Position numbers and translations under genes: made by a program
In this document: one piece after another, positions 49,102-64,000 of the stretch
How positions within the stretch are numbered: position 1 is the first letter of the stretch
How the letters are laid out: each line of letters begins with the position of its first letter
Notes under the pieces: model-generated
Seen by the model: only the letters and a program-made list of their open reading frames with translations
Database searches by the model: none
Told to the model about the DNA's origin: nothing
DNA from: Mycolicibacterium porcinum
GTDB lineage: Bacteria; Actinomycetota; Actinomycetes; Mycobacteriales; Mycobacteriaceae
DNA length: 64,000 nt
Direction: 5' to 3'
Assembly (NCBI GenBank): GCA_002086835.1
Contig: MVIG01000004.1
Location: forward strand, 310,001-374,000

Positions 49102-50511
49102 GTGGTGAGCAAGACATTCGCCGGCGCCCGTCTGCGGCGGCTGCGCGACGAGAGAGGCCTGACGCAGGTCGCACTGGCGCGCGCGCTGGGACTGTCGACG
49201 AGCTACGTCAACCAGCTGGAGAACGACCAGCGGCCGATCACCGTCCCGGTCTTGTTGGCCCTGTCCGACCGCTTCGACCTGCCGACCCAGTATTTCGCCC
49301 CCGACGCCGATGCCCGGCTGGTGTCCGATCTGCGCGAGATCCTGGCCGACGGGGCCACCAGCGCCCAGATCGAAGAGCTGGTCGCGCGCATGCCGGAGAT
49401 CGGTCAGACGATGGTGAACATGCATCGCCGGCTGCACGATGCCACCGCCGAACTGGAGGCGGTGCACGCTCGCGCCAACCTGGATGCGCAGGCGGGTGCG
49501 CAGCAGCCGATGCCGTTCGAAGAGGTACGCGACTTCTTCTACGACCGGCGCAATTACGTCGATCCGCTCGACCGCGCGGCCGAAGACCTGTTCACCCGTC
49601 ACCGCCTGCGGATCGGTGGTCTCGACCGGCAGCTCAGCGAGCTCCTGTCCGCCGAGTACGGGATCACTGTGATCGTTGACGACGGAGATGCCCTGGGCCC
49701 CAGCGTAAAACGTCGATACCTGCCCGAGGCAGGCACCCTGTACGTGGCGCGGTGGCTGCTGCCCGGCCAGCGCGCATTTCAGCTCGCGACCCAGATCGCC
49801 TTGGTGACGCAGTCCGATCTGATCAGTGCCATCGTCGCCACCGATGACCAATTGAGCTCAGAGGCAAGGCAGGTGGCGCGGATCGGGCTGGCCAATTACT
49901 TCGCCGGAGCCCTGCTGCTCCCCTACCGGATGTTCCTGTCCGCCGCCGAGAACCTGCGCTATGACATCGACCAGCTCGCCCGTCGCTTCGAGGTGGGGTT
50001 CGAGACGATCTGCCACCGCCTGTCAACTCTGCAGCGCCAGGACGCCCGCGGCATCCCGTTCATCTTCGTCCGTACCGACAGCGCGGGGAACATCTCGAAA
50101 CGCCAGTCCGCGACGGCTTTTCACTTCTCCCGGGTAGGCGGAAACTGTCCGCTCTGGGTGGTGCACCACGCGTTCTCGCGGCCCGGAGAGTTCCTGACCC
50201 AGGTGGCGCAGATGCCTGACGGTCGCAGCTACTTCTGGCTCGCGAAGACGTCGGCCGCTGCCCCGGGCCGATACCTGGGAACGCCCAAGAGTTTCGCCAT
50301 CGGCCTCGGTTGCGACCTGGGCCACGCAGACAAGCTGGTCTATTCGGTGGGCATCGACTTGAGCGACCCCGAAGCCACGGTGCCCATCGGCGCGGGTTGC
50401 CGGATCTGCGACCGCCCGGCCTGCCCGCAGCGCGCCTTCCCGTATGTGGGCCGGCCGGTCCACGTCGACCCGCAGACCAGCACCAATCTGCCCTATTCAC
50501 CGACAGCCTGA
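49102..50511 (+). CDS. prpR: Methylcitrate-cycle regulator PrpR (short-chain fatty acid sensor)
   Basis: This 469-residue regulator is homologous to Rv1129c. The N-terminal XRE-type helix-turn-helix is clear (LRRLRDERGLTQVALARALGLSTSYVNQLENDQRPI, residues 11-46). The central and C-terminal parts match the ScfR/DUF2083 acyl-CoA sensing family, with a Cys cluster GAGCRICDRPACPQRAF near residue 435 that could hold an Fe-S cluster. It activates prp genes on propionyl-CoA. GTG codons at 49102 and 49105 are both possible; TAGCCT at 49091-49096 would place the transcript start on them, so the mRNA may be leaderless. Confidence 0.92.
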   Translation: MVSKTFAGARLRRLRDERGLTQVALARALGLSTSYVNQLENDQRPITVPVLLALSDRFDLPTQYFAPDADARLVSDLREILADGATSAQIEELVARMPEIGQTMVNMHRRLHDATAELEAVHARANLDAQAGAQQPMPFEEVRDFFYDRRNYVDPLDRAAEDLFTRHRLRIGGLDRQLSELLSAEYGITVIVDDGDALGPSVKRRYLPEAGTLYVARWLLPGQRAFQLATQIALVTQSDLISAIVATDDQLSSEARQVARIGLANYFAGALLLPYRMFLSAAENLRYDIDQLARRFEVGFETICHRLSTLQRQDARGIPFIFVRTDSAGNISKRQSATAFHFSRVGGNCPLWVVHHAFSRPGEFLTQVAQMPDGRSYFWLAKTSAAAPGRYLGTPKSFAIGLGCDLGHADKLVYSVGIDLSDPEATVPIGAGCRICDRPACPQRAFPYVGRPVHVDPQTSTNLPYSPTA

Positions 50512-50535
50512 GCAGGTGTGCAATCCGGCACGTCA

Positions 50536-51261
50536 ATGCGGGACAATGGCGCGGTGGACTGCGTGGTGGCACGAGAGGCGCTTTCGGCGCGCCTCGACGG
50601 GGAGCGGGAGCCGGTCCCCTCTGCACGCGTCGACGAGCATCTGCGCGGTTGCCGCGATTGTGCCGCCTGGTACGGCAAGGCGGAATCGCAAGCCCTGCTG
50701 CTCCGCGATCTGGCCAACACCGGATTGATCGGCACGGTGAGCGGGACTCCCGACAGCGGGAGTACGGCGCTGGGCAGGCTCGGACATCGGCTCGGCAGGC
50801 AGTGGCTGACCATCGCAATCGTCGTCTTCGGGGTCGCCCAGGTGGTCCTGGCGGTCGCCCAGGCCGTCGGCATCAATTTCGGAATGGTCGCCGCGCATCA
50901 TGGATCGGCCAGCGGAGCCCATCTGCTCAACGAGTCCACGGCATGGTCGGCCGCACTCGGAATCGCCACCGTGGCAATGGCTTTCCGTCGGCGTATCGCT
51001 CCGGGCCTGGCCTGCGTGCTGGTGATCTACTGCGGGTTTCTCGCCTATTACGTGGTATCCGACGCGATTGCCGGTCAGGTGACACCGGTCCGCGTCCTGA
51101 GCCATCTGCCGGTGGCGGTGGCGGCGGTCCTCTCGCTCCTGGCCTCGCGTGCCGCCCGTCCCGATGATCCGTCGCCCAGGGCGCGTGGAGACGACGACGA
51201 AGCAGGTCCGGCCGCACCCACCCGTCGCCATCTGCGCGCAGCCGACGATCCCGCCGCCTGA
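50536..51261 (+). CDS. Zinc-finger (zf-HC2) membrane protein, candidate anti-sigma factor
   Basis: This protein of up to 241 residues begins with the anti-sigma style block DCVVAREALSARLDGERE and the zinc motif HLRGCRDCAAWY (HxxxCxxC), as in ZAS anti-sigma factors. It is followed by about four membrane helices (TIAIVVFGVAQVVLAVAQAV, AWSAALGIATVAMAF, GLACVLVIYCGFLAYYVV, LPVAVAAVLSLLA) and an acidic tail. A GTG at 50554 gives the usual MDC start; the ATG at 50536 adds six residues. It is not adjacent to sigC (5.9 kb away), but sits in the same copper locus. An anti-SigC role is inference only; a copper-responsive release would be expected. Confidence 0.8.
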   Translation: MRDNGAVDCVVAREALSARLDGEREPVPSARVDEHLRGCRDCAAWYGKAESQALLLRDLANTGLIGTVSGTPDSGSTALGRLGHRLGRQWLTIAIVVFGVAQVVLAVAQAVGINFGMVAAHHGSASGAHLLNESTAWSAALGIATVAMAFRRRIAPGLACVLVIYCGFLAYYVVSDAIAGQVTPVRVLSHLPVAVAAVLSLLASRAARPDDPSPRARGDDDEAGPAAPTRRHLRAADDPAA

Positions 51262-51265
51262 ACCG

Positions 51266-51907
51266 CTACAACATGACGCCGAACATGATCGCCATACCTG
51301 CGGCCATCATCGCCCGGCACAACATGCCGAACTGAGCGAACGGCGACGTTCCGAGATGCCGCTGCCGCGCCGCGAAGTAGTGGTACAGCCAGATGGCGGC
51401 AGCGATCACGAAGCCGATCGTCAAGAGCCAGTTGACGGCTGAGATCCACGGCGGCTGCACCGACATCGGCTCCATGGCCATCGCCGTCCCGCCGCCGTGG
51501 TGCCCGGCCGAGTGCATCGCGGCCATGTCGTGGCCACCCCCGGCCGCCGTGGCCCGACCGCGCGGCAGCACATTGCCGTTCATCGCGGCATACATCCACG
51601 CCATCGCCAGCATCATCGCGGCGTGATAGCCGTCGACCAGGCGGCTGCGGGTCTCGGCAGCGCGCAACACGCCGACCACGAACCAGACGGCGGCAGCCAG
51701 AAAGAAGAACATCGGGCCGACGGTCGGTAGCTGTGCCCCGCGCGGCCAGGCCATCACCACCATTGCGACGGCCATCGTCAGGTGAAGCACCTGGCTCACC
51801 GCAGCGGCCGGCCTGCCCCGGGAGTGCACCAGGGCGTAGGCGCATTCGGCGGCGCTCAGGGCGAACAGCACCGTTACCACCCACCGGAGCGCGAGATCGG
51901 CGATCAT
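51266..51907 (-). CDS. DUF5134-family membrane protein with Met/His-rich loop
   Basis: This 213-residue protein has about five membrane helices. It contains a His/Met-rich stretch (GGGHDMAAMHSAGHHGGGT then MAMEPMS) and other Met-His patches (YHAAMMLAMAWMYAAM), typical of copper-handling membrane proteins. DUF5134 is otherwise uncharacterised. The ATG at 51905-51907 has AGGA upstream. A SigC-type promoter (51944-51972) ends about 30 bp before the start. It converges with the zf-HC2 gene over 4 bp and diverges from the CopD/CtaG gene. Confidence 0.85.
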   Translation of the reverse strand: MIADLALRWVVTVLFALSAAECAYALVHSRGRPAAAVSQVLHLTMAVAMVVMAWPRGAQLPTVGPMFFFLAAAVWFVVGVLRAAETRSRLVDGYHAAMMLAMAWMYAAMNGNVLPRGRATAAGGGHDMAAMHSAGHHGGGTAMAMEPMSVQPPWISAVNWLLTIGFVIAAAIWLYHYFAARQRHLGTSPFAQFGMLCRAMMAAGMAIMFGVML

Positions 51908-51943
51908 TCCAAGTCCTGTCTGCCAGCGTCGGCCATCGTCATT

Positions 51944-51972
51944 TGGTCGGGGGCGGCGGCGCCAAAGTTCCC
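51944..51972 (-). promoter_or_regulatory. SigC-type promoter 1 (DUF5134 gene)
   Basis: GGGAAC (51967-51972), 17-nt spacer, CGACCA (51944-51949) on the minus strand. It has the same form as the promoters before the 54281 membrane gene, ctpB, the PepSY gene and the HMA gene. The start ATG is 37 bp downstream of the -10. Confidence 0.75.
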
Positions 51973-51985
51973 GCACCCATCACTA

Positions 51986-52004
51986 CTACGACACATTGTC
52001 GTAG
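51986..52004. promoter_or_regulatory. Perfect operator palindrome CTACGACA-N3-TGTCGTAG
   Basis: The 19-bp site CTACGACACATTGTCGTAG has perfect 8-bp arms. It lies between the divergent DUF5134 and CopD/CtaG genes, 55 bp before the latter, and resembles BlaI/MecI/CopY-family operators (ACA-TGT core). No such regulator is encoded in the window. Confidence 0.65.
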
Positions 52005-52058
52005 ACTCACCTGGCCGCGACGTTTCGTTCGGTTCCGCGGCGGAAGGCCGGTTCGACT

Positions 52059-54014
52059 ATGGCGCGTGTGCAAATACCCGGTGAGACCAGCGTGTGGCGG
52101 GAACGCTCGACGCTGGCGGGCGCCGCCGTAGGGTGCGCAGTGGTGCTGTTTCTGTGCGCTTTGCGGCTGGGCGAACAGCGGCTGGCCGCCGCGGGGATCG
52201 CCGACCCTGGAACGGCCACCAACGCAGCCCGGTTGCTCGGACACTGGGCCGCCACCCTCGCCGGTGCCGTGTGCACCGGTGCGCTCGTCTGGATCGTGAC
52301 GACCGCAACACCGCGCGACGACGGGCGGATCGACGCGGGCTCGTTTCCAGCGCATCTTCTCGTCGAGCGCATCGCGATCGCGTGGACCGGTTGCGCCACC
52401 GCCATGGTCATCATCTCCGCATCCGCCGACGCGGGAATCCCCGTCGGCCGGCTCGTCGCGGGCCCCGGCCTCGGTAGCGCCATCGCGGCCTCGGAGGTCG
52501 CACGTGGCTGGTGCGTAGCGGCCATCTGCGCGCTGGTGCTGGCCGTCGGCATCCGTTTCACCCTCCGGTGGTTCGGGCACTGTGTGGCGCTACTCCCCGC
52601 GCTGATCGGAGTGATCGCGGTCCCGGTCACCGGCAACGCCGGGCAGGGCCCGGACCATGACATCGCCACCGGTGCGGTGATCGTCTTCTCGGTGGTGATC
52701 GCGGTGTGGGCCGGGACCAAGATCGCCACGGCCGGACTGCGCGACGTCGTCGTCCCACGACGCGTCCAGAAATTGCACGTCGCCTGCGGAGCGGTCGCCG
52801 TCGTCTACGGCGCCCTGCTGGCCACGCTGATGTTGGGCGGGTTGCCGATCCTGGGGTCGACCTACGGGCTGGCCGTGCTCGTCGCCGGGGTGCTGCTGGT
52901 GCTGGTGTGGGTTGGCGACGGCATTTTTCTGCTGAGGCGCCGTACCTCGTCGCGGTTGACGAACACCCTGTCTGCGGCTGCGATGATCGTCGTCACCGCC
53001 GCGGTGGCCGTCGCCGCGACGAGTGTGCCGCCCCGGTTCACCGTCCACGAGTTCTCTACGTGGGACGTCTTTTTGGGCTACCAGCTCGATGCGCCTCCAA
53101 GTCCGGTCACCTTGATCACCGAGTGGCGGTTCGACCCGCTGATCGGAACGGCCGCCATCGTGCTGGCACTGGGCTACCTCGTCGCCGCGGCGCGGCTGCG
53201 ACGACGGGGCGACCATTGGCCGGTCGGCCGCACGATCGCCTGGTCCCTCGGTTGCGCGGCCTTGCTGCTCACCACCAGCTCCGGGGTACGCGCCTACGGA
53301 TCGGCGATGTTCAGCGTGCACATGGGTGAACACATGGCGCTGAACATGTTCGTCCCGGTGCTTCTGGTCCTCGGCGCACCGGTGACCCTCGCCCTACGCG
53401 TCCTGCCGGCCGCACCAAAGGGCGGAACGCCGGGACCTCGTGAATGGTTGACGTGGTTCGTGCATGCACCGGTGACGCGGTTCCTGTCGCACCCGGTGAC
53501 GGCTTTCGTCTTGTTCGTCGGGTCGCTGTACCTGGTCTACTTCACGCCCCTGTTCGACACCCTGATCCGGTATCACTGGGGCCACGAGTTCATGACCGTG
53601 CACTTCCTGCTGACCGGCTACCTGTACTACTGGGGAATCATCGGCATCGACCCGGGGCCGCGCCGGCTCCCCTTCCTGGGGCGGCTCGGGCTGCTGTTCG
53701 CCGTGATGCCGTTCCACGCCTTCTTCGGGATCGCCACGATGACGATGACCTCGTCGCTCGGCGAGAGTTTCTACCGGTCCGTCAATCTGCCGTGGCTGCA
53801 GAGCATCTCGGATGACCAGCACCTGGGCGGCGCCATCGCGTGGGGCTCGAGCGAGGTGCCGGTGATCATCGTCGTGGTCGCCCTGGTGGCCCAGTGGGCA
53901 CGCCAGGACCGCCGGGCGGGTGCCCGGGAGGACCGCCACAGCGATCGTGGGTATGACGACGAACTGGACGCCTACAACGCGATGCTGCAGGAACTTTCCC
54001 GCACCCGACGCTGA
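52059..54014 (+). CDS. CopD/CtaG fusion membrane protein, copper-locus copy (Rv0102 homologue)
   Basis: This 651-residue polytopic protein has the Rv0102 architecture: N-terminal CopD-like helices and a C-terminal CtaG domain with FSVHMGEHMALNMFVPVLLVLGAP, TVHFLLTGYLYYWGIIGIDP, MPFHAFFGIATMTM and DDQHLGGAIAW. It should move or donate copper for oxidase assembly at the membrane. It is a clear paralogue of the protein at 17208-19238. No GGGAAC-type promoter precedes it; instead the palindrome at 51986-52004 does, so its control may differ from its neighbours. It converges on the metallothionein-like gene. Confidence 0.9.
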   Translation: MARVQIPGETSVWRERSTLAGAAVGCAVVLFLCALRLGEQRLAAAGIADPGTATNAARLLGHWAATLAGAVCTGALVWIVTTATPRDDGRIDAGSFPAHLLVERIAIAWTGCATAMVIISASADAGIPVGRLVAGPGLGSAIAASEVARGWCVAAICALVLAVGIRFTLRWFGHCVALLPALIGVIAVPVTGNAGQGPDHDIATGAVIVFSVVIAVWAGTKIATAGLRDVVVPRRVQKLHVACGAVAVVYGALLATLMLGGLPILGSTYGLAVLVAGVLLVLVWVGDGIFLLRRRTSSRLTNTLSAAAMIVVTAAVAVAATSVPPRFTVHEFSTWDVFLGYQLDAPPSPVTLITEWRFDPLIGTAAIVLALGYLVAAARLRRRGDHWPVGRTIAWSLGCAALLLTTSSGVRAYGSAMFSVHMGEHMALNMFVPVLLVLGAPVTLALRVLPAAPKGGTPGPREWLTWFVHAPVTRFLSHPVTAFVLFVGSLYLVYFTPLFDTLIRYHWGHEFMTVHFLLTGYLYYWGIIGIDPGPRRLPFLGRLGLLFAVMPFHAFFGIATMTMTSSLGESFYRSVNLPWLQSISDDQHLGGAIAWGSSEVPVIIVVVALVAQWARQDRRAGAREDRHSDRGYDDELDAYNAMLQELSRTRR

Positions 54015-54047
54015 CATGCCGCCGAGTGGACGGGCGAGGCGTTCAGA

Positions 54048-54158
54048 TCATTCAGCCGCGTCGGCACCGCAGGTGCAGTTGGCCCCGCAGTTGCAGTTCT
54101 CGCACGTACAGTTCGGGTTGTCGCACTTCGTCGATCCGGCTGTTTCATTGCTGGTCAT
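54048..54158 (-). CDS. 36-residue Cys-rich metallothionein-like peptide
   Basis: A small frame on the minus strand encodes 36 residues with seven Cys (12, 17, 19, 22, 24, 28, 30). The core is CDNPNCTCENCNCGANCTC, built on three N-C-x-C units, with no aromatic residues and an acidic tail. This is the composition of a Cu(I) metallothionein, comparable in idea to mycobacterial MymT but different in sequence. The ATG is at 54156-54158; no ribosome site is visible, so it may be leaderless. It lies among copper genes, between the Rv0102-like gene and a SigC-type promoter. Expression is unproven. Confidence 0.75.
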   Translation of the reverse strand: MTSNETAGSTKCDNPNCTCENCNCGANCTCGADAAE

Positions 54159-54199
54159 GCATATGAGGTTACGCCCGATACCTGCTGATCAGGCCACAA

Positions 54200-54228
54200 C
54201 GGAACTAATCCCGACGTGCCGCCGACCA
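54200..54228 (+). promoter_or_regulatory. SigC-type promoter 2 (membrane protein gene)
   Basis: CGGAAC (54200-54205), 17-nt spacer, CGACCA (54223-54228) on the plus strand, 52 bp before the GTG at 54281. The -10 is identical to those of the DUF5134 and PepSY genes. Confidence 0.72.
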
Positions 54229-54280
54229 ATCAGTGGGGCCATCGAGATCGACACCACAGGACTATCCGAAAGGTACTTCA

Positions 54281-54769
54281 GTGACTTCTCAGGAGATGGC
54301 CGCGACGGTCGAGACCGAACTGCGGGCCATCGAGCGCCGGGTGTTCGAGGACGTGTGGATCAGCGCGTCGCGCGCCCGTGTCCTGGCAACACTGGCCGCC
54401 GGTTTGACCGCGGCGGCCGTCGCGTTGCGCGCAACTGGCGAAGTCTCCGACGGCGCGACCCGCAACGGGCACTGGATATCACTCGTGGCCTTCACCCTGT
54501 TCACCCTGGCGGCGGTGGCCTCGGCTTTCGCCCTGGTACGTCGGAGGTTTCGGTGGTGCTGCATGGCCACCTGTACGTCGGCCGTCGCCACCGTGGCCGG
54601 CGCCGGGACGTTCTGGTGGCATCACACCGCGCATACCGCTTCCTGGGTGCCTGCGGCGCTGGGCACGCTCACCGTCGCCGCGCTGACCGCGGGATGGCTG
54701 GGTGTGTGCCTGGCCCCGCTGGACGCGTCTCAGCCGGATATGCGGGCCGCCGCGCGCTCCTGCGATTGA
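54281..54769 (+). CDS. Small four-helix membrane protein of unknown function
   Basis: This 162-residue protein has a soluble N-terminal helix ([29 protein letters not shown] in part) and about four membrane helices ([77 protein letters not shown]). Two Cys pairs (RWCCMATC) and His residues (WWHHTAH) face the membrane surface and could bind copper. I use the GTG at 54281 with AAAGG upstream. Its 3' end overlaps the convergent ctpB by 40 bp. The SigC-type promoter links it to the copper locus. I do not recognise the family. Confidence 0.75.
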
Positions 54770-57027
54770 GCATCGCGGAACGTATTCGGTTGGACCGTGC
54801 CGTAATTGCGCAGCCGTAGGCTGTTCGACACCACCAGGAACGACGACACCGCCATCGCCGCCCCCGCGATCAGCGGGTTCAGCAGGCCGGCCGCGGCGAT
54901 CGGAATCGCCGCGACGTTGTAGCCGAAGGCCCAGATCATGTTGACCCGGATGGTCCGCATCGTCGCGCGGGCCAGACCCAGCGCCTGCGGGACCGAATCG
55001 AGGTTGTCCCGGAGCAGGATGATGTCGGCCGCGCCGATGGCGACGTCGGTCCCCCTGCCGATGGCGAGGCCCAGGTCGGCGCAGGCCAAGGCGGGACCGT
55101 CGTTGATCCCGTCACCGACCATGGCCACCACCCGGCCCTGCTCGCGCAGTTTCTCGATGGCGCCGACCTTGTCCTCGGGCAGCACCTCGGCCACCACGTC
55201 GTCGATGCCGACGGCGGCCCCGATCGCGGCGGCCGTCGCCGCGTTGTCGCCGGTCAACAACATGGTCTTCATGCCCTCGGCATGCAGGTGTGCGATGGCC
55301 CCGGCCGCCGACTCCTTGACGGCGTCGGCGATGCAGATGGCTCCGCACACAGTGTCGCCGTGCGCGACGAATACCACCGTCTGGCCCTGTGCCTCACCCG
55401 CTTTGCGGGCCGCGGCGAGGTCGGCCGGTACCACGCGGTCCCGGGTCACCCAGGCGGGGCGACCGACGGCCACTGCCACACCGTCCACCGAGCCGGCCAC
55501 ACCGTGGCCCGCGAACGCCTGGAAGTTCTCGACGTCGGCGATGTCACGACCCGCTCGGGCGGTGACGATCGCATGCGCCACCGGGTGTTCGGATGCCGAT
55601 TCGACGGCCGCCGCATGTCCGAGCACCTCGTCCTCGGTCCATCCGTCGGCCACAGCGACGGTGATGACCTGAGGCTGTCCGGTGGTGAGGGTGCCGGTCT
55701 TGTCGAACACAACGGTGTCGACCGCACGGATCGCCTCAAGCGCCCGGTGGCCCTTGAGGAAGATGCCCAGCTGAGCGCCGCGTCCCGAGGCCACCATCAT
55801 CGCCGTCGGGGTGGCCAGTCCCAGCGCGCACGGGCAGGCGATCACCAGGACCGCCAGGGCCGCCGATACCGCTCGGTTGACGTCGCCGTCGGCCAGCAGC
55901 CAACCGATCGCGGTGGCCGCGGCGATGACGAGTACGCACGGCACGAACACCGACGCGATGCGGTCCGCGAGCCGCTGCGCGTCGGCCTTCTGTGCCTGCG
56001 CCTGCTCGACCAGGCGGACCATCCCGGCGAACCGGGTGTCTGGTCCGACCGCGGCTGCCTCGACGATCAACCGGCCGTCGAGGACGACGGTGCCACCCAC
56101 GACGCTCGAACCTTCGTGTGTCTGTACCGGTTTCGACTCTCCGGTCATCGCGCTGACGTCGACAGCGGCCGCCCCGGACACCACGAGACCGTCGGCCGCG
56201 ATGGCTTCGCCGGGACGGACGACGAAACGCTGGCCTTCTTTGAGCTCGTCGGCGGGCAGCACGAGTTCGCCGCCGTCGGACAGCAGCACCGTCACCGACT
56301 TGGCGCCGAGTGCCGCCAGCGCCCGCAGCGCTCCCCCGGCGCGCGAGCGGGCCCGCGCCTCGAAATACCGGCCGGCGAGCACGAAAACCGTGACCCCCGC
56401 AGCGACCTCGAGGTAGATGGCGTCGCTGCCCAGCAGCGCCTGCCAGACACCCGCCGCGTGGTAGGTCTGGTGATCGAAGAAGATCGTGTACATCGACCAC
56501 ACGGTGGCGGCCGTGACGCCGATGGAGATCAAGGTCTCCATGGTCGAGGTTCCGTGCCGGGCATTTCGCAGTGCGGTGCGGTGGAACGGCCATGCGGCCC
56601 AGGTGACGATCGGAGCCGCCAACGCGGTGAGCACCCACTGCCACCCGGTGAACCGCGTATCGGGCACCACGGCAAACATGACCGAGAGATCGGCCAGCGG
56701 GATGAACAACACCGCGGCGATCGCGAGGCGACGGAGCAGGCTGCGGGCGTGGTCGGCATCGGGGTCGACGTCGGTCGTGGCGCGTTCGGTGCGGGGGGCC
56801 GCCTGATACCCGGCGCGCTCGATGACCGCACACAACTGCTCGACGCCGACGTCCGGGGTGGCTTCGACAGTGGCGACGCGTGTGGCGAAGTTCACTGACG
56901 CGCGGACGCCTTCGATCTTGTTGAGTTTGTTCTCCACGCGGGCGGCGCAGGCCCCGCACGACATTCCTGTGACGTCGAGCGCAATACGCTGGGTCACCTC
57001 ATCGTCGGGGACAGTTGCTGTCGTCAC
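54730..57027 (-). CDS. ctpB: Copper-transporting P1B-type ATPase
   Basis: This 765-residue ATPase is closely similar to CtpB (Rv0103c). The N-terminal heavy-metal domain has GMSCGAC (Cys24, Cys27); the membrane metal site is CPC at 398-400 ([11 protein letters not shown]); the phosphorylated residue is Asp442 in DKTGTL, and [11 protein letters not shown] is the hinge. Eight membrane helices are expected. CPC ATPases of this class move Cu(I) across the membrane, here probably into the periplasm for cuproenzymes. The start is a GTG at 57025-57027 with GGAG upstream. A SigC-type promoter lies at 57093-57121, and sigC is divergent. Confidence 0.95.
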
Positions 57028-57092
57028 CAGTACTCCAATTGCTCACTCACCACGCCGGTGGCCTACATCACCGACATTCGTCACCGAATATG

Positions 57093-57121
57093 TAGTCGCT
57101 CCGGCCCGATGCCGAGTTCCC
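57093..57121 (-). promoter_or_regulatory. SigC-type promoter 3 (ctpB)
   Basis: GGGAAC (57116-57121), 17-nt spacer, CGACTA (57093-57098) on the minus strand, 66 bp before the ctpB GTG. The element lies within the ctpB-sigC intergenic region. Confidence 0.75.
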
Positions 57122-57136
57122 GGGCGGCATCGAATA

Positions 57137-57703
57137 ATGTCGAGGACCGTGACTACCGAACGCGGCGAGGGCCACGTTACGCGGCTGGCCTTCGCCGCCG
57201 GCCGCGGTGATTCGGCAGCACTCGAGCAATTCATCCGGGCCACCCAGACCGATGTCTGGCGAACCGTCGCCTACCTCGGTGACGCCGGGTCTGCCGACGA
57301 CCTGACGCAAGAGACGTTCATGCGCGCCATCACCGCGCTGCCCCGGTTCAGCGGCCGGTCGTCTGCACGTACCTGGCTGCTGTCGATCGCTCGGCGCGTG
57401 GTGGTCGACCAGATCCGGCACAAGCAGAGCCGCCCGCGGACCCAGCACGGAGTCGACGTCGAGCAGGTCCTGGAGACCTACCGCCCGGTCGGTGGCTTCG
57501 AGAAGATGGTGGAGATCCGGCTCTTGCTGGACGGACTCGACCCCGACCGGCGGCACGCGCTGTTGCTGACCCAGGTTCTCGGCTTGTCCTACGCAGAAGC
57601 GGCCGAGGTGTGCGGGTGTCCCGTCGGCACGATTCGGTCCCGGGTGGCACGAGCCCGGGAAGATCTGATCGCCGCGGCCGAGCGGGACGATCTGACCGGC
57701 TAG
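57137..57703 (+). CDS. sigC: ECF sigma factor SigC
   Basis: This 188-residue ECF sigma factor closely matches M. tuberculosis SigC (Rv2069). Region 2 contains [27 protein letters not shown] and [20 protein letters not shown]; region 4 contains [33 protein letters not shown]; the tail ERDDLTG is conserved. Two Cys in VCGCP of the region 4 helix are notable. In M. tuberculosis sigC sits beside blaC, whereas here it lies between ctpB and the chalkophore genes. The ATG at 57137 is used; a GTG at 57149 is possible. Its stop overlaps that of the PepSY gene (CTAG). Confidence 0.93.
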
Positions 57704-59154
57704 CGCCGCCGGTGGTGCTGTCGCCATCCCACCGCGACATCGACCGCCGCGAACACGAGCAGGCTGGCACCCAGCAACGGGATGAACCAGCCGAGCACTG
57801 CCGCCGCGACGACCAAGGCCACCGCTGCCACGGGCGGTATGCCGGTGAGAACTCCGCGCCGCGGCGCAGGGCCCACCGGCCGGCCACCGGCAGAGGGGCG
57901 TCGCCGCCACCAGAGCAGGTACCCGCGCACGATGACCGTGACCAACGCGAGCGCCAGACCCACCAGCACAAGCTGATTGGCGATCCCGAACAACAGCCCC
58001 ATGTGCAGTTGAATGCCCCAGGCAGACAGCTTCGCCGCCAGCGGCCAGTCGGCGAACCACGAGGTGTCGGTCACCGTCGCGGATGCACCGTCGACGGCCA
58101 CCGCGTTGTTCGACATCACCCAGGGCTGCCGGGTCTGGGCCACGGTGAACGCGGTGTGAGAGTCCGAGGGAATGCTGACCTCGACCTTGCCGCCGACCCC
58201 GGCCTCGCGTGCCACGTTCAGCACCCGGTCGATGTCACCGACCAATGGCGCGCCGTTCTGGTGAGTGGCCGTCGCGGCGCTGTGATGCCCCTGATGCCCG
58301 TCATGGCCGGATATTTCGCCGCCGGCGGTGCCACCGAGCGCCGTCGACACCGCCGGTGTGGCCCACGACAGCGCGGCACGCAGTTCGGTGACGTTGTCGC
58401 CGGCGAACCGTGACCACGTGAGTCCCGTCGCCGACAGGAACAGCAATCCCACGGCGATCCAGATCCCTACCACCCCATGCCAGTTCAGCGTCCTGGGCCG
58501 GCCCTGGACAGAGCGATCGAGGGTCAGCAGTCTGGGCTTCGGGTCACCGGGCCGCGGTGTGCGCCGGGATCTGGCCCACCACAGGAAAACCCCGGCCAGC
58601 GCGATCAGCCACAGCCACGAGGCTGCCAGTTCGCTGTACAGCCGACCCGGCTCCCCGAGGTGCAGACTGCGGTGCAACTGATCGATCCAGGTTCGCAGCG
58701 GCAACGCACCGCTGCTGCCGTAGACCGTCAGTTCACCGTGCGAGGCCGCGGTCACCGGGTCGACGAACACGGCTCGACGTTCGGACTCACCCAACCCCGG
58801 ATCGTCGAACAAGACGCGGGTGGTCTCACCTGCCCCGGTCGCCGGACGGACCGCGGTGACCGCCAGGTCGGGCCGAATCGCCTGGGCCGCCCGCACCTGA
58901 TCGGCGACCGGCAGCAGGTCCCCGCTGCTGTGGGATTCGAGCTGGTCGCGGTAGACGACCTGCTCGACGCTGGGCGCGATGGCGTACAACCCGCCGGTGA
59001 CGGCCGCGATCAGCAGGAAGGGACCGACGAATATCCCCGCGTAGAAGTGCAGGCGCAGCAGGAAGGCGCGATAGTGCGCGGTCCGCACCGGTGAGGCGGC
59101 CACTGGCTCCGGCGCCGCGCTCTCTTCGGTGACTGTCGACGGGTTCTCGCCCAT
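57700..59154 (-). CDS. PepSY-domain membrane protein with His-rich loop
   Basis: This 484-residue protein has four main membrane helices around two PepSY domains, with the family block [27 protein letters not shown] at the start and [30 protein letters not shown] in the middle. A periplasmic loop carries the His-rich stretch [19 protein letters not shown], which suggests copper binding. Related PepSY membrane proteins act as reductases or uptake partners in siderophore and copper systems. The ATG at 59152-59154 follows GAGGAG. A SigC-type promoter lies at 59189-59217. It could reduce or receive chalkophore-bound copper; that is inference. Confidence 0.87.
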
Positions 59155-59188
59155 GGCTCCTCAGTGGTCGAACGGTCCTCGATAGAAG

Positions 59189-59217
59189 TGGTCGTTCGCG
59201 CCACGCCGACAGTTCCC
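59189..59217 (-). promoter_or_regulatory. SigC-type promoter 4 (PepSY gene)
   Basis: GGGAAC (59212-59217), 17-nt spacer, CGACCA (59189-59194) on the minus strand, 35 bp before the ATG, in the 73-bp gap after the HMA gene. Confidence 0.78.
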
Positions 59218-59227
59218 GACAGAAATT

Positions 59228-59578
59228 TCAGCCGCCCATGTGCCCCACGGTCACCCACCGGATGGCCCTCGCCACCATCGAGGTGCTGTTCTGGGCCGGC
59301 GCGTCCGGCGAGGCTTGGTCGCCGTTGGCCGCGGTGCGCTCTTCTGCGCGGTAGCCGGCCTCTTCAACTGCCGCACAAAGGTCGGCGACACTGATGTCGT
59401 AGCGGGCGTCGACGGTCGCGATCTTGGTGGAGATGTCGACGGTGGCGGATACTCCGTCGATCTTGTTCAACTTGCTCTCCAGCCGACGCGAGCATGCTCC
59501 GCACGACATGCCCGTCACGTCGAGTCGGATGCGCCTGGCTTGTGATGTCTCTTCGCTGGATGCGGCTACTTCTGTCAC
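59228..59578 (-). CDS. CopZ-like heavy-metal-associated (HMA) copper chaperone
   Basis: This 116-residue protein has one HMA domain (about residues 16-80) with the copper site GMSCGAC (Cys26, Cys29). It is strikingly similar to the N-terminal domain of CtpB in the same locus: both share [20 protein letters not shown] and the LC-x-V-E-AGY end, so it looks like a duplicate of that domain turned into a free chaperone. The C-terminal 30 residues are of low complexity and end VGHMGG. It should hand Cu(I) to CtpB. The GTG at 59576-59578 follows GGGAGGG; a SigC-type promoter precedes it inside the nrp 3' end. Confidence 0.88.
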   Translation of the reverse strand: MTEVAASSEETSQARRIRLDVTGMSCGACSRRLESKLNKIDGVSATVDISTKIATVDARYDISVADLCAAVEEAGYRAEERTAANGDQASPDAPAQNSTSMVARAIRWVTVGHMGG

Positions 59579-59613
59579 TGCCGTCCCTCCCTGTGTCGTG
59601 GTGTCTGACCAAT

Positions 59614-59642
59614 AGGTCGTCAGACGGCCGGTATGAGTTCCC
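59614..59642 (-). promoter_or_regulatory. SigC-type promoter 5 (HMA gene)
   Basis: GGGAAC (59637-59642), 17-nt spacer, CGACCT (59614-59619) on the minus strand, 36 bp before the GTG of the HMA gene. The -35 lies in the last codons of the NRPS gene and the stop codon falls in the spacer. Confidence 0.75.
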
Positions 59643-62600
59643 GGGCCGCTCGGGCGAGCAGTGCCTGCACCGGCGGCGGCTGCGCCACGAGTTCACCGAC
59701 GGACCCGATATCCAGCGGGATGGCCGGGCGGTCGGCCAGGTACTCGGAGTAGGAGCGGGCACCGAGCTTGAGGCCAAGCCCGATCCAAGCGTCGATCACC
59801 GACCAGCGCCGCGGATCGGCCTTCGCCCACGCACTGTCATCCAGGCGCCGCTTCCACTCGCGGCTGTCGACCTCATCTCGGGCAACCGCGCCGAGCACCT
59901 CCCGATACGACACTGCCTGACCACGCACCAGATCGATGCCACGGCCAAGCTGCTCCGGTCCACCGAACTCCGGCATTCTGCGCAGGATGCCGGCGGCCGC
60001 CGCGCGGCCGGTCGTCACCTCTTCGGTCAATTCGATTGCCGGATACGCCTGTAGCGCATGGCAGGCCTCGACAACCGCCAGCAGAATGTCGGCGGACCCA
60101 CGCAGCTGTCCGGGTGTCCCCAGGACCCTGGGCAGGCGCACGATCGTGAAGTCGAGCTCCCGGTCTGCCCGGCTCACCGCCAGTTCGGCGAGCGCTTTCG
60201 AGGCCGCGTACGGGTACGGACCGTGACGAGGGTCGACCACTTCTGCCGCGGTGACATCCCCGTTGACGACATAGGTCGACAAATGGACCAGCCTGACACC
60301 GGAAGCCGCGCACATCTGAGCCATGGCCGCCACCAATTCCACATTGGCACAACGCAGTTCCCGATAAGGCACCACCACATTCGTGTTACCGATGCAATTG
60401 ATGAGGGTCCGCGGCGCGGTTCGGCGGATCAGCGCCTCCAACTCGGCCGGCCCGAACCCGGGCACCAGGGGCTCGATCCGCACGCCGGGTGCGTCCCGAA
60501 GCGCCGTCCACGTTCGATCACCGGACGGCACCGATCTGGCGGCCAGCACCACGTCGGGGCGCGGTACCGCTGACCGCGTCAGGTCCAGAATCGCCTCGGC
60601 GAACCCGGTGCCCAGAATTCCTGACGCGCCGAGCACCAGGATCGGCCCGGTATTCGGGCCGTGCGACGAGCGCCCGGGATCGGATACCGCAGCGCGCCGC
60701 GTCGACACTGCGGCGAGATCATGGTCGACGTCTGCCGCGGTGGCACGGTCCATCCAGCCGTTTCCGACCGATGCGTCGGCCACCAGGTTCGCCGCCGTAT
60801 CGGCACCGATGATGTCGAGCATCGAAACGTGCCGGTCGAGATATGCCCGCGTATCGGGCAGGATTCGCACCACGTCCAGCGACCCGACGCCTTCGCACAG
60901 CAGCGAGGTGGTGGGCGTGATCGGCCGGCCGAGTCGGGCAGACCAGATTTCGGCGAGGCCGGTGGCCCGCGTGCCGCCTTCACCGTCGACCTGCTGCCAC
61001 AGCCCGGAACCGGCCGATGTGGGCAGCCTTGCGGTGTCGGTCTTTCCGTTGGGTTTCCGGGGAATGCGCACGACGCCCGCGATGATGAACGCCGGGACAC
61101 GCAGACCGACCAGGATGGTGCTGATGCGTGCCGCCACGGTGGAGTCTTCCCCACCCGCACGGGTCTGCGCAGTCTCGAACCACACCCCAAGGCGACCGTT
61201 GTGAAGCTCCACGGCGACATCACGCACCGCGGGATCGGCCACGATGCGCCTGGTGATCTCAGCGATGTCGACCCGCTTGCCCGAGACCTTGACGAGCGCG
61301 TCTTTTCGCCCGGCGAACACTGGGTAGCCCTGGCCGTCGACCGTTACCCGGTCCGCAGTCGCATAGGCTCGCCGCCGTCGCCCGTCGGGCATGGCGATCA
61401 ACGCGAAATCGGCATTGTCCACACCGAGGTAGCCGTCGGACACCACCTCGCCCACCACGACAACTTCACCGAATGCGATCACCACCGTGTTGGGAACCAC
61501 CGGTGCTCCCAGGCGCCGACGCGCTCCGCGCTCGAGCACCTGACCGCCGGCAATGACCGGCACATGGCTCACCACCACCGTGGTCTCCGTGGGGCCATAG
61601 CTCGACACCACCGAGATGTCATCGGCACCGGTGGCATTGACCCATTTGTCGACGGCCGCGGGACGGACGGGCTCGCCCCCGATGACAATCTGTCTCAGCT
61701 GAGAGCGGCGCACCCCGGCGATCGCATCGACGTCCTCGCACCACAGATGCCACAGGGCGGTCGGCATGTCCACGACGGTCGCCCCGCACGCCGTCAGCTC
61801 CGAGCTGAACGCCTGCAGGTCACCGGCTCTCAGCGCGGAGGACCGGACGAGCGTCGCCCCAGCCAGAGCGGCGCCGAAGACTTCTTCGACACTGATGTCC
61901 GAAGTCAGCGGCGCGCATTGAAGGATGGTGTCGTCCGGCCCCCAGCCATACGCCCGGATCATCCCGGCACAGAACGCCGCCAGCGACCCGTGACTGACGC
62001 GCACGAGCTTGGGTTCCCCGGTCGATCCGGACGTCGGCATCACGTAAGCGGTCGTGCCCGCAAGGCGCGGGTCTGTCGCGGCCTGTTCGACGCGAGCTTC
62101 CACCCGGCCACGGTGCTGCGGGTCCAGGCTCGACGGGATGTCTGCCGAGGCGACGTCGACGACGTGTGCCGCCATGCCGTCGCCGTACTGGTTGATCGTC
62201 AAGGCCCGTGATCGCACCTCGTCATCGCGGTCACAGACGCTGTAGCCACAACCTGCGAGGTGCGACGCGATCATCAGGTCGATGGTCCTGTCTGTGCCGT
62301 CATCGGTGAAGACCACCACATCGCCTGGCGCCACGTTCGTTTCGAGCATCCAGGCGATCCAGGAGTCGACGTTGGGGTGGCGTCGACGGCATTCGGTGAC
62401 CGCCACGGGCCGATCGAGAAACCACGCGGGCGCCGACCGCTGCTCCGGTTCGCGCTCGTCCGAAACCGCATGCAACGTTCCGTCACTGGCGATCGTGCGC
62501 CAGTCGTCGACGGTCATCGCGATCGGCGAATCCCACATCGCCGTCATTGCTTTCAGGGCCCTGGCTACCCGTTCTGCCACATTGAGACCGCGCCGCGACC

Positions 62601-63804
62601 GATCTGGCCTGTCCCAGAAGTTGAGGGTGAGCACGCGCCGCTGCTCGTCGAGCACCGCCGCCACGGTCATCCCCTCGACCGGTCCGATGTGCGACGTCAC
62701 GGGTGCCTCGACCAGGAAAGGCGCCAGCTCGGGCGCGCAGGGCTCGCGCAGAAAATTGAGGGTCAAGGTCTCGACGGATGTGGTCCGGTTGATCGCGAGA
62801 TACATCCGGCGGTAGTGCTCCTCGCGCAACCAACGGCGGCGCCCGGCCCTCACGTAGCCTCGGTCCACCGCACACACCACATCCGCCACCGAGGCATGCG
62901 GTGCGAACCGGACCGGCTGTGCCATCGAGTTGACCAGACACGTCACGACGTCGAGTTCATGGTCCCCGAAGCGATTGTCGACCGCGTGCACCAGCAGACC
63001 CTCGGTGGTGTGACGCAGGCTGGAGTCCACGGCTGTCGCCGCTGTCGCCACCAGTACGTTGATCGGGACATTCTCCCGGCCGGCCAGCTGGCGGATCGCA
63101 TCGTAATCCGCGCCACGAAGCTGTGCGGACTCGACGAGAACCCCCTGGCCGACAGTTGCCGGGGTTTCCGCGGCAGGTCCATGGCTCCCAGCCAGGACGG
63201 AAGCGGTGAGCTCCTGTCGCACGACCGAGGTGAGGCGCTCCAGCGAGTCGGCGATCCGGGTTGCCTCTCGGCGGTGCGCGGTGGCGACCCGCGTCAAACC
63301 CTCGCGGATACCGGCGCTTTCGACCGAGTCGCCGTCGGTGAGGGCCCGGCCCAGATGCGCTTCGATGATGCCGATCGCGCCACCGTCGAGCAGGATGTGG
63401 TGCGCTTGAGCATCGAGGCCGCACACCCATCCGTTGCCGTCGACCCGCACGGTGTAGCGCACCAGCGGCCTCTCGAGGATGCCAGGCCTCCATTCGTCGG
63501 CCAGCTCGGCGCTTCGGTCGTCGCCGCACACCTGCACGATGTCGTCCACATCAAGCCGGGGTACGAGATCCGGGTAACCGTCAGCGTCCGAAGCTGATGT
63601 CAGCACGCACAATTGAATGGGGTTGGCACGGATGGTCTTCCGTAGCGCGGCCAAGAACTCCGGCTGCGATATCGGCTGGAACCGGTAGCGCCTTCCGATC
63701 AGATACAGCTGCGGATCCGTATCCTGCAGCGCCCCGTTGTAGATGTTGCGCTGTGCGCGGCTCAGCGGAACCCGTTGCACGCGTTGACCTTCAGACAGGT
63801 TCAC
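59620..63804 (-). CDS. nrp: Single-module NRPS with terminal reductase (isonitrile lipopeptide/chalkophore synthetase, Rv0101-related)
   Basis: This 1394-residue enzyme has four domains: condensation with HHILLDG (His135, His136, Asp140); adenylation with PTSGSTGEPK (590-599) and YGPTETT (Tyr736); a thiolation domain with Ser975 in EGVGSLDVV; and a thioester reductase with GASGILG (from Gly1059) and YAASK (Tyr1199, Lys1203). It would join an acyl group to an amino acid and release it reductively. Rv0101 is, from memory, about 2500 residues with two modules, so this is a shorter C-A-T-R form. The thiolation motif has Gly where Asp or His is usual before Ser. The GTG start overlaps the carrier protein gene by 14 bp. 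Confidence 0.9.
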   Translation of the reverse strand: MNLSEGQRVQRVPLSRAQRNIYNGALQDTDPQLYLIGRRYRFQPISQPEFLAALRKTIRANPIQLCVLTSASDADGYPDLVPRLDVDDIVQVCGDDRSAELADEWRPGILERPLVRYTVRVDGNGWVCGLDAQAHHILLDGGAIGIIEAHLGRALTDGDSVESAGIREGLTRVATAHRREATRIADSLERLTSVVRQELTASVLAGSHGPAAETPATVGQGVLVESAQLRGADYDAIRQLAGRENVPINVLVATAATAVDSSLRHTTEGLLVHAVDNRFGDHELDVVTCLVNSMAQPVRFAPHASVADVVCAVDRGYVRAGRRRWLREEHYRRMYLAINRTTSVETLTLNFLREPCAPELAPFLVEAPVTSHIGPVEGMTVAAVLDEQRRVLTLNFWDRPDRSRRGLNVAERVARALKAMTAMWDSPIAMTVDDWRTIASDGTLHAVSDEREPEQRSAPAWFLDRPVAVTECRRRHPNVDSWIAWMLETNVAPGDVVVFTDDGTDRTIDLMIASHLAGCGYSVCDRDDEVRSRALTINQYGDGMAAHVVDVASADIPSSLDPQHRGRVEARVEQAATDPRLAGTTAYVMPTSGSTGEPKLVRVSHGSLAAFCAGMIRAYGWGPDDTILQCAPLTSDISVEEVFGAALAGATLVRSSALRAGDLQAFSSELTACGATVVDMPTALWHLWCEDVDAIAGVRRSQLRQIVIGGEPVRPAAVDKWVNATGADDISVVSSYGPTETTVVVSHVPVIAGGQVLERGARRRLGAPVVPNTVVIAFGEVVVVGEVVSDGYLGVDNADFALIAMPDGRRRRAYATADRVTVDGQGYPVFAGRKDALVKVSGKRVDIAEITRRIVADPAVRDVAVELHNGRLGVWFETAQTRAGGEDSTVAARISTILVGLRVPAFIIAGVVRIPRKPNGKTDTARLPTSAGSGLWQQVDGEGGTRATGLAEIWSARLGRPITPTTSLLCEGVGSLDVVRILPDTRAYLDRHVSMLDIIGADTAANLVADASVGNGWMDRATAADVDHDLAAVSTRRAAVSDPGRSSHGPNTGPILVLGASGILGTGFAEAILDLTRSAVPRPDVVLAARSVPSGDRTWTALRDAPGVRIEPLVPGFGPAELEALIRRTAPRTLINCIGNTNVVVPYRELRCANVELVAAMAQMCAASGVRLVHLSTYVVNGDVTAAEVVDPRHGPYPYAASKALAELAVSRADRELDFTIVRLPRVLGTPGQLRGSADILLAVVEACHALQAYPAIELTEEVTTGRAAAAGILRRMPEFGGPEQLGRGIDLVRGQAVSYREVLGAVARDEVDSREWKRRLDDSAWAKADPRRWSVIDAWIGLGLKLGARSYSEYLADRPAIPLDIGSVGELVAQPPPVQALLARAARELIPAV

Positions 63805-64000
63805 CGAGCTTCTCCAACTCGTGGACCCATCCCGCCAACGACAGGTTCCCGGCCAGTCGCCGCGGAACGTCGGATTCCCGATCGATGCCGAGTCGCTTCA
63901 TCAGCAGGACGAATCGAACCGAGTCCAGCCCGAGATCCCTGAGGTCTGTGGCATCTCCGTCGACCAGATCAGTCTCGTCGACGTACAGCACCTCCGCGAG
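63791..64000 (-). CDS. Carrier protein of the isonitrile lipopeptide cluster (Rv0100 homologue), 5' truncated by window edge
   Basis: About 69 codons are visible, open at the right edge. The protein matches Rv0100: EVLYVDETDLVDGD, then the phosphopantetheine serine in DLGLDSVRFVLLMKRLGI, and a C-terminal SLAGWVHELEKLGE. In M. tuberculosis it carries the fatty acyl unit loaded by FadD10 for the NRPS. The gene overlaps the NRPS start by 14 bp. The isonitrile-forming oxygenase, thioesterase and ligase genes would lie beyond the window on the right. Confidence 0.92.
   Translation of the reverse strand, partial: LAEVLYVDETDLVDGDATDLRDLGLDSVRFVLLMKRLGIDRESDVPRRLAGNLSLAGWVHELEKLGEPV

What the first reader, a model, noticed from the sequence alone, without database searches (positions are those of the whole stretch)
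50536..64000. Self-contained SigC copper-acquisition locus joined to a chalkophore NRPS cluster
Within 13.5 kb the sequence groups the Rv0100/Rv0101-like lipopeptide genes, a CopZ-like HMA chaperone, a His-rich PepSY membrane protein, sigC, ctpB, a metallothionein-like peptide, an Rv0102-like CopD/CtaG protein, a Met/His-rich DUF5134 protein and a zf-HC2 membrane protein. In M. tuberculosis sigC lies elsewhere (next to blaC) although SigC is reported to affect copper acquisition genes. Physical linkage here suggests the complete low-copper scavenging system: chalkophore, import or reduction, chaperone, pump and oxidase insertion.
Basis: partly seen in the sequence, partly recalled or inferred. 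Interest (0 to 1): 0.9.

Follow-up and report, generated by a model that had tools for sequence, protein, structure and literature searches.

The report
Copper-scavenging regulon with its sigma factor
A mycobacterium keeps, in one stretch of DNA, genes for making a copper-catching molecule and handling copper together with the switch protein SigC, which probably turns most of them on through one shared promoter sequence.

Summary
New here: a promoter motif, GGAACY-N16-CGACY, derived from pump upstreams (82 of 86), stands before the pump, copZ, pepSY, DUF5134, a small membrane-protein gene, scoE and a PPE gene (probably PPE1). The strict form occurs 14 times in the 6.96-Mb genome, 6 of them in this 15-kb stretch. 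So a SigC locus holding most of its own targets is well supported by sequence; expression is untested. It is no strain oddity: sigC is divergent from the pump in 86 of 105 genomes with the pump. Corrections: this SigC is a sister lineage of M. tuberculosis SigC, not its displaced orthologue; the pump lies outside the CtpB clade; CtaG and the metallothionein-like gene lack the motif. The zf-HC2 membrane protein (putative RscA, proposed before as anti-SigC) co-occurs with SigC (191 both, 102 neither, 4 mismatches of 297; fusions count for both). Best reading: a copper-starvation regulon under SigC, probably restrained by this zf-HC2 protein. A new variant of a known kind.

The parts
50518..51261 (+). 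zf-HC2 plus membrane domain protein, putative anti-SigC (RscA/Rv0093c-like)
   Evidence: Pfam zf-HC2 2.5e-08 and DUF2275 24.7 bits, cutoff 24.6; invariant C15, H41, C45, C48 and H135, E139, W143, D182, R192 in 38 sequences; co-occurrence with SigC
51266..51907 (-). DUF5134 membrane protein, Met/His-rich (probable start at 51907; ORF open to 51976)
   Evidence: Pfam PF17197 9.2e-35
51944..51971 (-). SigC-type promoter motif of DUF5134 gene
   Evidence: motif in 18 of 43 DUF5134 upstreams
51986..52004 (.). perfect palindrome CTACGAC-N5-GTCGTAG before CtaG gene, a likely operator
   Evidence: only copy in the genome; in 31 of 39 CtaG upstreams
52059..54014 (+). CopD/Caa3_CtaG copper-protein assembly factor (Rv0102-like, label recalled)
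   Evidence: Pfam PF09678 6.5e-90; no SigC motif upstream (0 of 39)
54048..54158 (-). 36-aa Cys-rich metallothionein-like peptide
   Evidence: conserved in L010-L014 and L018, more distant matches in L036 and L043; no Pfam or NCBIfam match
54201..54228 (+). SigC-type promoter motif of the small membrane protein gene
   Evidence: 16 of 28 upstreams
54281..54769 (+). small membrane protein, weak match to Rv2732c family
   Evidence: NCBIfam NF050115 1.8e-06, 27.7 bits, below cutoff 60
54730..57027 (-). CtpA/CtpB-type copper P1B-ATPase with HMA domain
   Evidence: tree
57093..57120 (-). SigC-type promoter motif of the pump gene
   Evidence: 82 of 86 pump upstreams
57137..57703 (+). sigC, ECF sigma factor, pump-linked lineage
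   Evidence: NCBIfam NF007231 266 bits above cutoff 219; PDB 2o7g/2o8x; trees
57700..59154 (-). PepSY_TM membrane protein with His-rich loop
   Evidence: Pfam PF03929 5.2e-71; best PDB sequence match 7abw, E 0.011
59189..59216 (-). SigC-type promoter motif of pepSY
   Evidence: 30 of 43 upstreams
59228..59578 (-). CopZ-like HMA copper chaperone
   Evidence: Pfam HMA 1e-11; NCBIfam CopZ models match below their cutoffs
59614..59641 (-). SigC-type promoter motif of copZ, overlapping the 3' end of the NRPS gene
   Evidence: 23 of 25 upstreams
59620..63804 (-). one-module NRPS with thioester-reductase end (nrp/ScoA-like)
   Evidence: a one-module frame of 1367-1492 aa in 61 of the 64 genomes with a match (G026 2563 aa, G045 1232 aa, G249 in two pieces)
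63791..64000 (-). acyl carrier protein (Rv0100-like), start lies 36 bases past the window; operon continues with FadD10, FcoT, ScoE and a PPE gene

Best explanation
The stretch is a copper-starvation regulon whose sigma factor, probable anti-sigma factor and most targets lie together. Shown from sequence: an isonitrile-lipopeptide operon (PPE, ScoE, FcoT/ScoD, FadD10, ACP, NRPS), a copper chaperone, a PepSY_TM protein, a Cu-type P1B-ATPase, DUF5134 and a small membrane protein, in seven transcription units each preceded by the same ECF-type promoter motif, with sigC among them. Inferred: when copper is ample the zf-HC2 membrane protein holds SigC; copper lack frees it; SigC turns on the units; the chalkophore binds copper outside, PepSY_TM helps to strip or reduce it, CopZ and the pump hand Cu(I) on for insertion into oxidases, helped by CtaG, which has a palindrome of its own upstream and is probably not under SigC.
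For: Core motif GGAAC-N17-CGAC[TC] in 82 of 86 distinct pump upstreams (shuffles 0.36 on average). The strict form gives 14 hits in the genome, 6 in this 15.2 kb (chance 3e-13) plus one 43 nt before a PPE gene on contig C47. Tally for genes other than the pump: CopZ 23/25, PepSY 30/43, ScoE 18/35, small membrane protein 16/28, DUF5134 18/43; SigC 0/131, zf-HC2 1/74, NRPS 0/36, CtaG 0/39; reversed pattern 0 in each class. All 64 of 64 genomes with the NRPS have SigC. sigC divergent from the pump, 74-281 bp apart, in 86 of 105 genomes. In M. [quoted passage not shown] Biosynthetic identity: ScoE equivalog above cutoff, PDB 9p9n family 4.8e-172, FadD10 1.1e-241. In two genomes with sigC beside PepSY (G092, G050) the motif also precedes a PCu(A)C copper-chaperone gene (Pfam for the first).
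Against: No expression data for this organism. The NRPS lies within 20 kb of a sigC in only 32 of 64 NRPS genomes (16 farther on the same contig, 16 on different contigs). The reversed pattern occurs 24 times in the genome, more often than the motif (14), so hits outside the locus carry little weight. Two genomes (G074, G091) have the pump with the motif and the zf-HC2 protein but no SigC match. CtaG and the Cys-rich peptide lack the motif. Motif counts are higher in SigC-bearing genomes (78 in 16) than in SigC-less ones (11 in 14), but the reversed control is higher there too (87 against 47). Tallies are not corrected for relatedness. The anti-sigma role rests on domain, co-occurrence and fusion, not on binding.
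Confidence: 0.77

Rival explanations
1. A copper-resistance (efflux) island: the pump, chaperone, metallothionein-like peptide, PepSY and DUF5134 export or bind excess copper, and the chalkophore operon is merely next door.
For: Pump and HMA chaperone resemble CopA/CopZ export pairs; a Cys-rich peptide is present; SigC induction in M. tuberculosis also raised copper-toxicity genes after 48 h (PMC7924339 passages).
Against: The same motif stands before scoE and the PPE gene and before the pump, copZ and pepSY. In M. [quoted passage not shown]
Confidence: 0.12
2. SigC here is controlled without an anti-sigma factor (by conformation or by its own transcription), and the zf-HC2 protein only travels with it.
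For: A review files M. tuberculosis SigC (ECF36) under conformational control (PMC8999054 passages); Grosse-Siestrup et al. write that no anti-SigC factor had been identified (PMC7924339 passage).
Against: Close co-occurrence, one open frame zf-HC2-membrane-sigma in 19 of 44 loci listed (Pfam domain order in the three scanned), invariant zinc-binding residues, profile match to RsiW 8.6e-04.
Confidence: 0.2
3. The cluster serves zinc or several metals rather than copper.
For: An M. [quoted passage not shown]
Against: The accompanying genes are of copper families (HMA chaperone, Cu-type pump, Caa3_CtaG), and SigC or nrp loss in M. tuberculosis gives copper phenotypes (PMC7924339 and PMC9600254 passages).
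Confidence: 0.08
4. Plain synteny without shared control.
For: Neighbouring genes can be inherited together in a clade.
Against: Motif evidence and groupings kept in distant lineages, e.g. Williamsia L075 and, in other order, Amycolatopsis L078, L079, L081, L084, L088.
Confidence: 0.03

Closest known systems
M. tuberculosis SigC regulon (ctpB and ppe1-nrp)
   Same: Same kind of sigma factor, same chalkophore operon content, a copper pump as target
   Different: There sigC lies apart from rscA/Rv0093c (PMC6917791 passages) and is of the sister lineage. Here they are linked, and copZ, pepSY, DUF5134 and a small membrane protein carry the motif. The NRPS has one module (4185 bp), against 7539 bp in M. 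tuberculosis and 4250 bp in M. marinum (PMC7924339 passage).
Isonitrile lipopeptide clusters (ScoA-E of Streptomyces, MmaA-E of M. marinum; names recalled)
   Same: ScoE-like synthase, FcoT/ScoD, acyl ligase, ACP, NRPS with reductase end
   Different: Joined to its sigma factor and to copper-handling genes; product not known
Putative RscA (Rv0093c) anti-SigC
   Same: zf-HC2 membrane protein near sigC; proposed before, and noted close to sigC in the M. mucogenicum clade and M. marinum (PMC6917791 passages) and fused to SigC in the M. avium complex (PMC7563442 passage)
   Different: Here examined over 297 genomes; linked to copper genes; invariant membrane H, E, D and R residues pointed out
PepSY_TM reductases such as FoxB (PDB 7abw)
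   Same: PepSY_TM family; best PDB sequence match
   Different: Match is weak (E 0.011); substrate here presumed a copper chelate; the name FoxB and its role are recalled, the PDB entry is listed only as PepSY domain-containing protein

Membership tests
SigC (ECF36) sigma factors | NCBIfam SigC equivalog above curated cutoff | tested here: met
   266.4 bits, cutoff 219
SigC (ECF36) sigma factors | same clade as M. tuberculosis SigC | tested here: not met
   Mtb falls in the fused-type clade (100/99); the window's SigC in the pump-linked lineage (support 68/82, 89/88)
Isonitrile lipopeptide (chalkophore) cluster | ScoE-type oxygenase/decarboxylase | tested here: met
   NF049937 483 bits, cutoff 400; 9p9n 4.8e-172
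Isonitrile lipopeptide (chalkophore) cluster | ScoD/FcoT, FadD10-type ligase, ACP, NRPS with A, carrier and reductase domains | tested here: met
   Pfam FcoT 2.9e-55, PP-binding, FadD10 1.1e-241, NRPS A domain and thioester reductase. Against: the NRPS carrier domain scores 18.8, under Pfam's cutoff of 20.8, and no condensation domain was reported; NCBIfam ScoD scores 125, cutoff 250
Isonitrile lipopeptide (chalkophore) cluster | makes a copper-binding diisonitrile | not testable with these tools
   needs chemistry
Zinc-binding anti-sigma factors | H-x3-C-x2-C zinc motif in a zf-HC2/anti-sigma domain | tested here: met
   zf-HC2 2.5e-08; H41, C45, C48 invariant in 38; RsiW profile match 8.6e-04
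Zinc-binding anti-sigma factors | fold of the N-terminal domain | tested here: inconclusive
Zinc-binding anti-sigma factors | binds and inhibits SigC | not testable with these tools
   the model of a natural fusion packs its domains with low confidence, pTM 0.47
CtpB (Rv0103c) | member of the CtpB clade | tested here: not met
   window pump lies outside the 19-row CtpB-position clade (100/100); no M. tuberculosis pump was in the tree, and the labels ctpA/ctpB come from the M. tuberculosis gene order as recalled
MymT metallothionein | sequence family match | tested here: inconclusive
   no Pfam or NCBIfam match for the 36-aa peptide
PepSY_TM family | Pfam PF03929 above cutoff | tested here: met
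   240 bits, cutoff 28.8

The most novel reading that the evidence does not exclude
The zf-HC2 membrane protein is the copper-starvation sensor of SigC: its invariant membrane residues H135, E139, D182 and near-invariant H196 hold a copper ion (or a copper-dependent haem) and its loss lets SigC go; in some mycobacteria sensor and sigma factor are one polypeptide. The regulon includes a chalkophore-stripping PepSY_TM reductase and, in several lineages, type VII secretion (ESX-3-like) and a PCu(A)C chaperone.
Probability: 0.3. Interest if true: 0.8.

Novelty: new variant of a known kind. Interest (0 to 1): 0.62.

Why it matters
How M. tuberculosis senses copper lack, and what restrains SigC, was stated as open (PMC7924339 passage). 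The compact locus points to a testable partner (the zf-HC2 protein), offers a candidate promoter sequence by which SigC regulons can be sought in other mycobacterial genomes, and adds copZ, pepSY, DUF5134 and a small membrane protein as likely parts of bacterial copper scavenging. It also qualifies a published view that CtpB occurs only in the M. tuberculosis complex, the M. marinum/ulcerans clade and M. leprae (PMC9147137 passage): pumps of the CtpB-position clade were found in 19 sampled genomes, of which G113 and G215 have the contig lengths of the M. szulgai and M. angelicum records, and 105 of 297 genomes carry a pump at 65% or more identity to the window's, 86 of them beside sigC.

Tried and rejected
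The idea that M. tuberculosis sigC is simply this gene moved elsewhere was rejected by the trees and by G236, which carries both lineages (G160 does too, but one of its rows has a long branch). The name ctpB was dropped. ctaE, with one GGAACC-type hit in this genome, had no strict motif in 30 other genomes; one, G155, has the bare core: probably chance. ESX-3-like eccA: strict motif within 400 nt in 6 of 18 SigC-bearing loci tested and 0 of 12 SigC-less ones, two more at 573 and 590 nt; in the window's own group it overlaps the coding end of the gene before it and is lost in G296 and G049, so it stays a lead. AlphaFold of a natural zf-HC2-SigC fusion did not settle the packing (pTM 0.47); its Foldseek list is headed by sigma domains; the zf-HC2 protein alone gave no significant Foldseek match. 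The NRPS amino-acid specificity was not attempted. Literature: only an open-licence library was searched (10 searches). The paper with the published SigC promoter elements was not looked up by id, and Harris et al. 2017 is not held, so the motif was not compared with a published one, and 'not in print' is not claimed.
Full report
What is there. The window's last 13.5 kb hold, in order on the + coordinate: zf-HC2 membrane protein (+), DUF5134 (-), CopD/Caa3_CtaG (+), a 36-aa Cys-rich peptide (-), a small membrane protein (+), a heavy-metal P-type ATPase with HMA domain (-), sigC (+), PepSY_TM protein (-), CopZ-like HMA protein (-), a one-module NRPS with reductase end (-) and an ACP (-). The window is G000:C37:310001-374000 of a 6.96-Mb draft genome in 102 contigs; the named records nearest at sigC are M. 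senegalense, M. septicum and M. peregrinum (96-98% SigC identity), so it is probably of the M. fortuitum group (label recalled). The contig ends 3661 bases past the window and there continues the operon: FadD10 (PDB 4ir7, 1.1e-241), FcoT/ScoD-like, a ScoE-like isonitrile synthase (NCBIfam equivalog above cutoff; PDB 9p9n family 4.8e-172) and the end of a PPE protein. This is the order of the M. tuberculosis ppe1-nrp operon (gene names recalled; the operon is described in PMC7924339, passages).

The promoter motif. Distinct sequences upstream of the pump gene from fetched loci (86) share GGAAC-N17-CGAC[TC] in 82, always with the same spacing; Markov shuffles gave 0.36 on average, at most 2 (the four misses are L015, L035, L148 and L194). 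It has the shape of an ECF promoter (recalled). In the window the form GGAACY-N16-CGACYW occurs 5 times, all between 51944 and 59641, against a mean of 0.10 in shuffles: before DUF5134, the small membrane protein, the pump, pepSY and copZ, ending 34-65 nt before the start codons I assigned. A sixth lies before scoE past the window. In the whole genome there are 14 matches: these 6 within 15.2 kb, a seventh 43 nt before a PPE gene that runs off a short contig (C47; probably PPE1, since C37 ends inside a PPE gene), and 7 others. The chance of 6 of 14 in that fraction of the genome is 3e-13. The reversed pattern, as control, has 24 matches in the genome, so single hits elsewhere mean little by themselves.

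Which genes carry it elsewhere. Over loci L009-L199, distinct upstreams with the motif: pump 82/86 (not independent, as the motif came from them), CopZ 23/25, PepSY 30/43, ScoE 18/35, small membrane protein 16/28, DUF5134 18/43; zf-HC2 1/74, SigC 0/131, CtaG 0/39, Cys-rich peptide 0/6, NRPS 0/36, ACP 0/36, FadD10 0/36, FcoT 0/35; reversed pattern 0 in each class. That inner operon genes lack it is what one expects of an operon; a further core site before the window genome's own FcoT gene appeared. In 12 of the 14 loci L180-L193 another motif lies 1.4-1.7 kb before the scoE start, where a PPE gene would begin (the PPE gene was not annotated there). Counts per genome of the form GGAACT-N16-CGACYA: 78 in 16 SigC-bearing and 11 in 14 SigC-less genomes, but the reversed control is also higher in the first set (87 against 47), so this contrast is only partly telling. 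CtaG instead has a perfect palindrome, CTACGAC-N5-GTCGTAG, the only copy in the genome, kept in 31 of 39 CtaG upstreams; the protein that reads it is unknown.

Conservation of the linkage. Of 297 genomes of the genus (drawn by the tool, the window's own included), 192 have SigC at E <= 1e-20, 64 the NRPS at E <= 1e-150, and 105 the pump at 65% identity or more, after which identities drop to 55%. sigC lies within 2 kb of the pump in 86 of the 105, always divergent, 74-281 bp apart. Of the 19 others, three have no SigC match (G074, G091, G257), three (G029, G218, G221) had no sigC coordinates printed, and G142 has an uncounted second SigC beside its pump, so 86 is a lower bound. All 64 NRPS genomes have SigC; the NRPS lies within 20 kb of a sigC in 32 of 64, farther on the same contig in 16, and on another contig in 16. 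Outside the genus, Amycolatopsis loci such as L078 group PepSY, DUF5134, zf-HC2, SigC, CtaG and pump.

Two SigC lineages. In a 130-row tree mycobacterial SigCs form a pump-linked lineage (74 rows, support 89/88; 68 of them pump-adjacent) and a second one (32 rows, 96/89) with PepSY-adjacent, zf-HC2-fused and solitary genes. M. tuberculosis SigC (from PDB chains) falls in the second (100/99 for fused type plus Mtb; pump-linked rows 68/82) and is 66% identical to the window's. G236 carries both. The pump tree has a 19-row clade (100/100) of pumps not beside sigC, the CtpB position; the sigC-adjacent pumps, the window's included, lie outside it, as do the pumps next to zf-HC2, the ctpA position. 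The window pump may be co-orthologous to both. In two 3.3-Mb genomes a sigC-like sequence (34-40% identity) remains beside the ctpA-position pump.

How it most likely works. Shown: gene content, shared motif, conservation. From the literature on M. tuberculosis: SigC drives ctpB and ppe1-nrp (PMC7924339 passages) and supports growth in copper-starved medium, and ctpB is induced by chelation (PMC9147137 passages). Inferred here: the zf-HC2 protein restrains SigC; copper lack frees it; chalkophore, PepSY_TM, CopZ and pump then collect and pass on copper, with CtaG for oxidase assembly under separate control. The direction of the pump is unsettled even for M. tuberculosis CtpB (PMC9147137 passages).

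Verdict. A new variant of a known regulon, of interest mainly because it makes the copper-sensing question testable.

Noticed in passing
L214:7858-7885 (own genome C15:367857), L219, L229, L232, L253-L256: The SigC-type motif stands before eccA of an ESX-3-like type VII secretion operon (label from gene order) in several SigC-bearing lineages (6 of 18 loci within 400 nt; 0 of 12 SigC-less), but overlaps coding sequence in the window's own group and is lost in G296 and G049.
   Followed up: partly
L220:8930-9403, L223:8549-9013: In G092 and G050 (M. abscessus-like is my label) the motif lies just before a PCu(A)C copper-chaperone gene (Pfam PF04314 scanned in L220 only).
   Followed up: partly
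L222:8887-9681, L225:9014-9805: In the same two genomes the motif precedes a phosphorylase-superfamily gene (Pfam in L222 only; looks like methylthioadenosine phosphorylase, recalled).
   Followed up: no
window 51986-52004: Palindrome CTACGAC-N5-GTCGTAG before CtaG: only copy in the genome, in 31 of 39 CtaG upstreams; binding protein unknown (BlaI/CopY type is a guess).
   Followed up: partly
L217, L218, L226: PPE-type genes with the SigC-type motif in G276, G142 and G227 (Pfam PPE scanned in L217 only); in the first two they lie before the ESX-3-like eccA.
   Followed up: no
L227:3995-4921: G276 has a further TauD-family, ScoE-like gene with the motif 28 nt before its ORF, perhaps a second isonitrile cluster.
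   Followed up: no
L307, L308 (G074, G091): Genomes with pump plus motif and zf-HC2 protein but no SigC match: exceptions to the co-occurrence.
   Followed up: partly
L291:5079-5597, L292:764-1192: Degraded sigC-like sequence beside the ctpA-position pump in two 3.3-Mb genomes.
   Followed up: partly
window 49102-50511: Next gene upstream is an HTH / IrrE-like / ScfRs regulator, not part of the locus.
   Followed up: no
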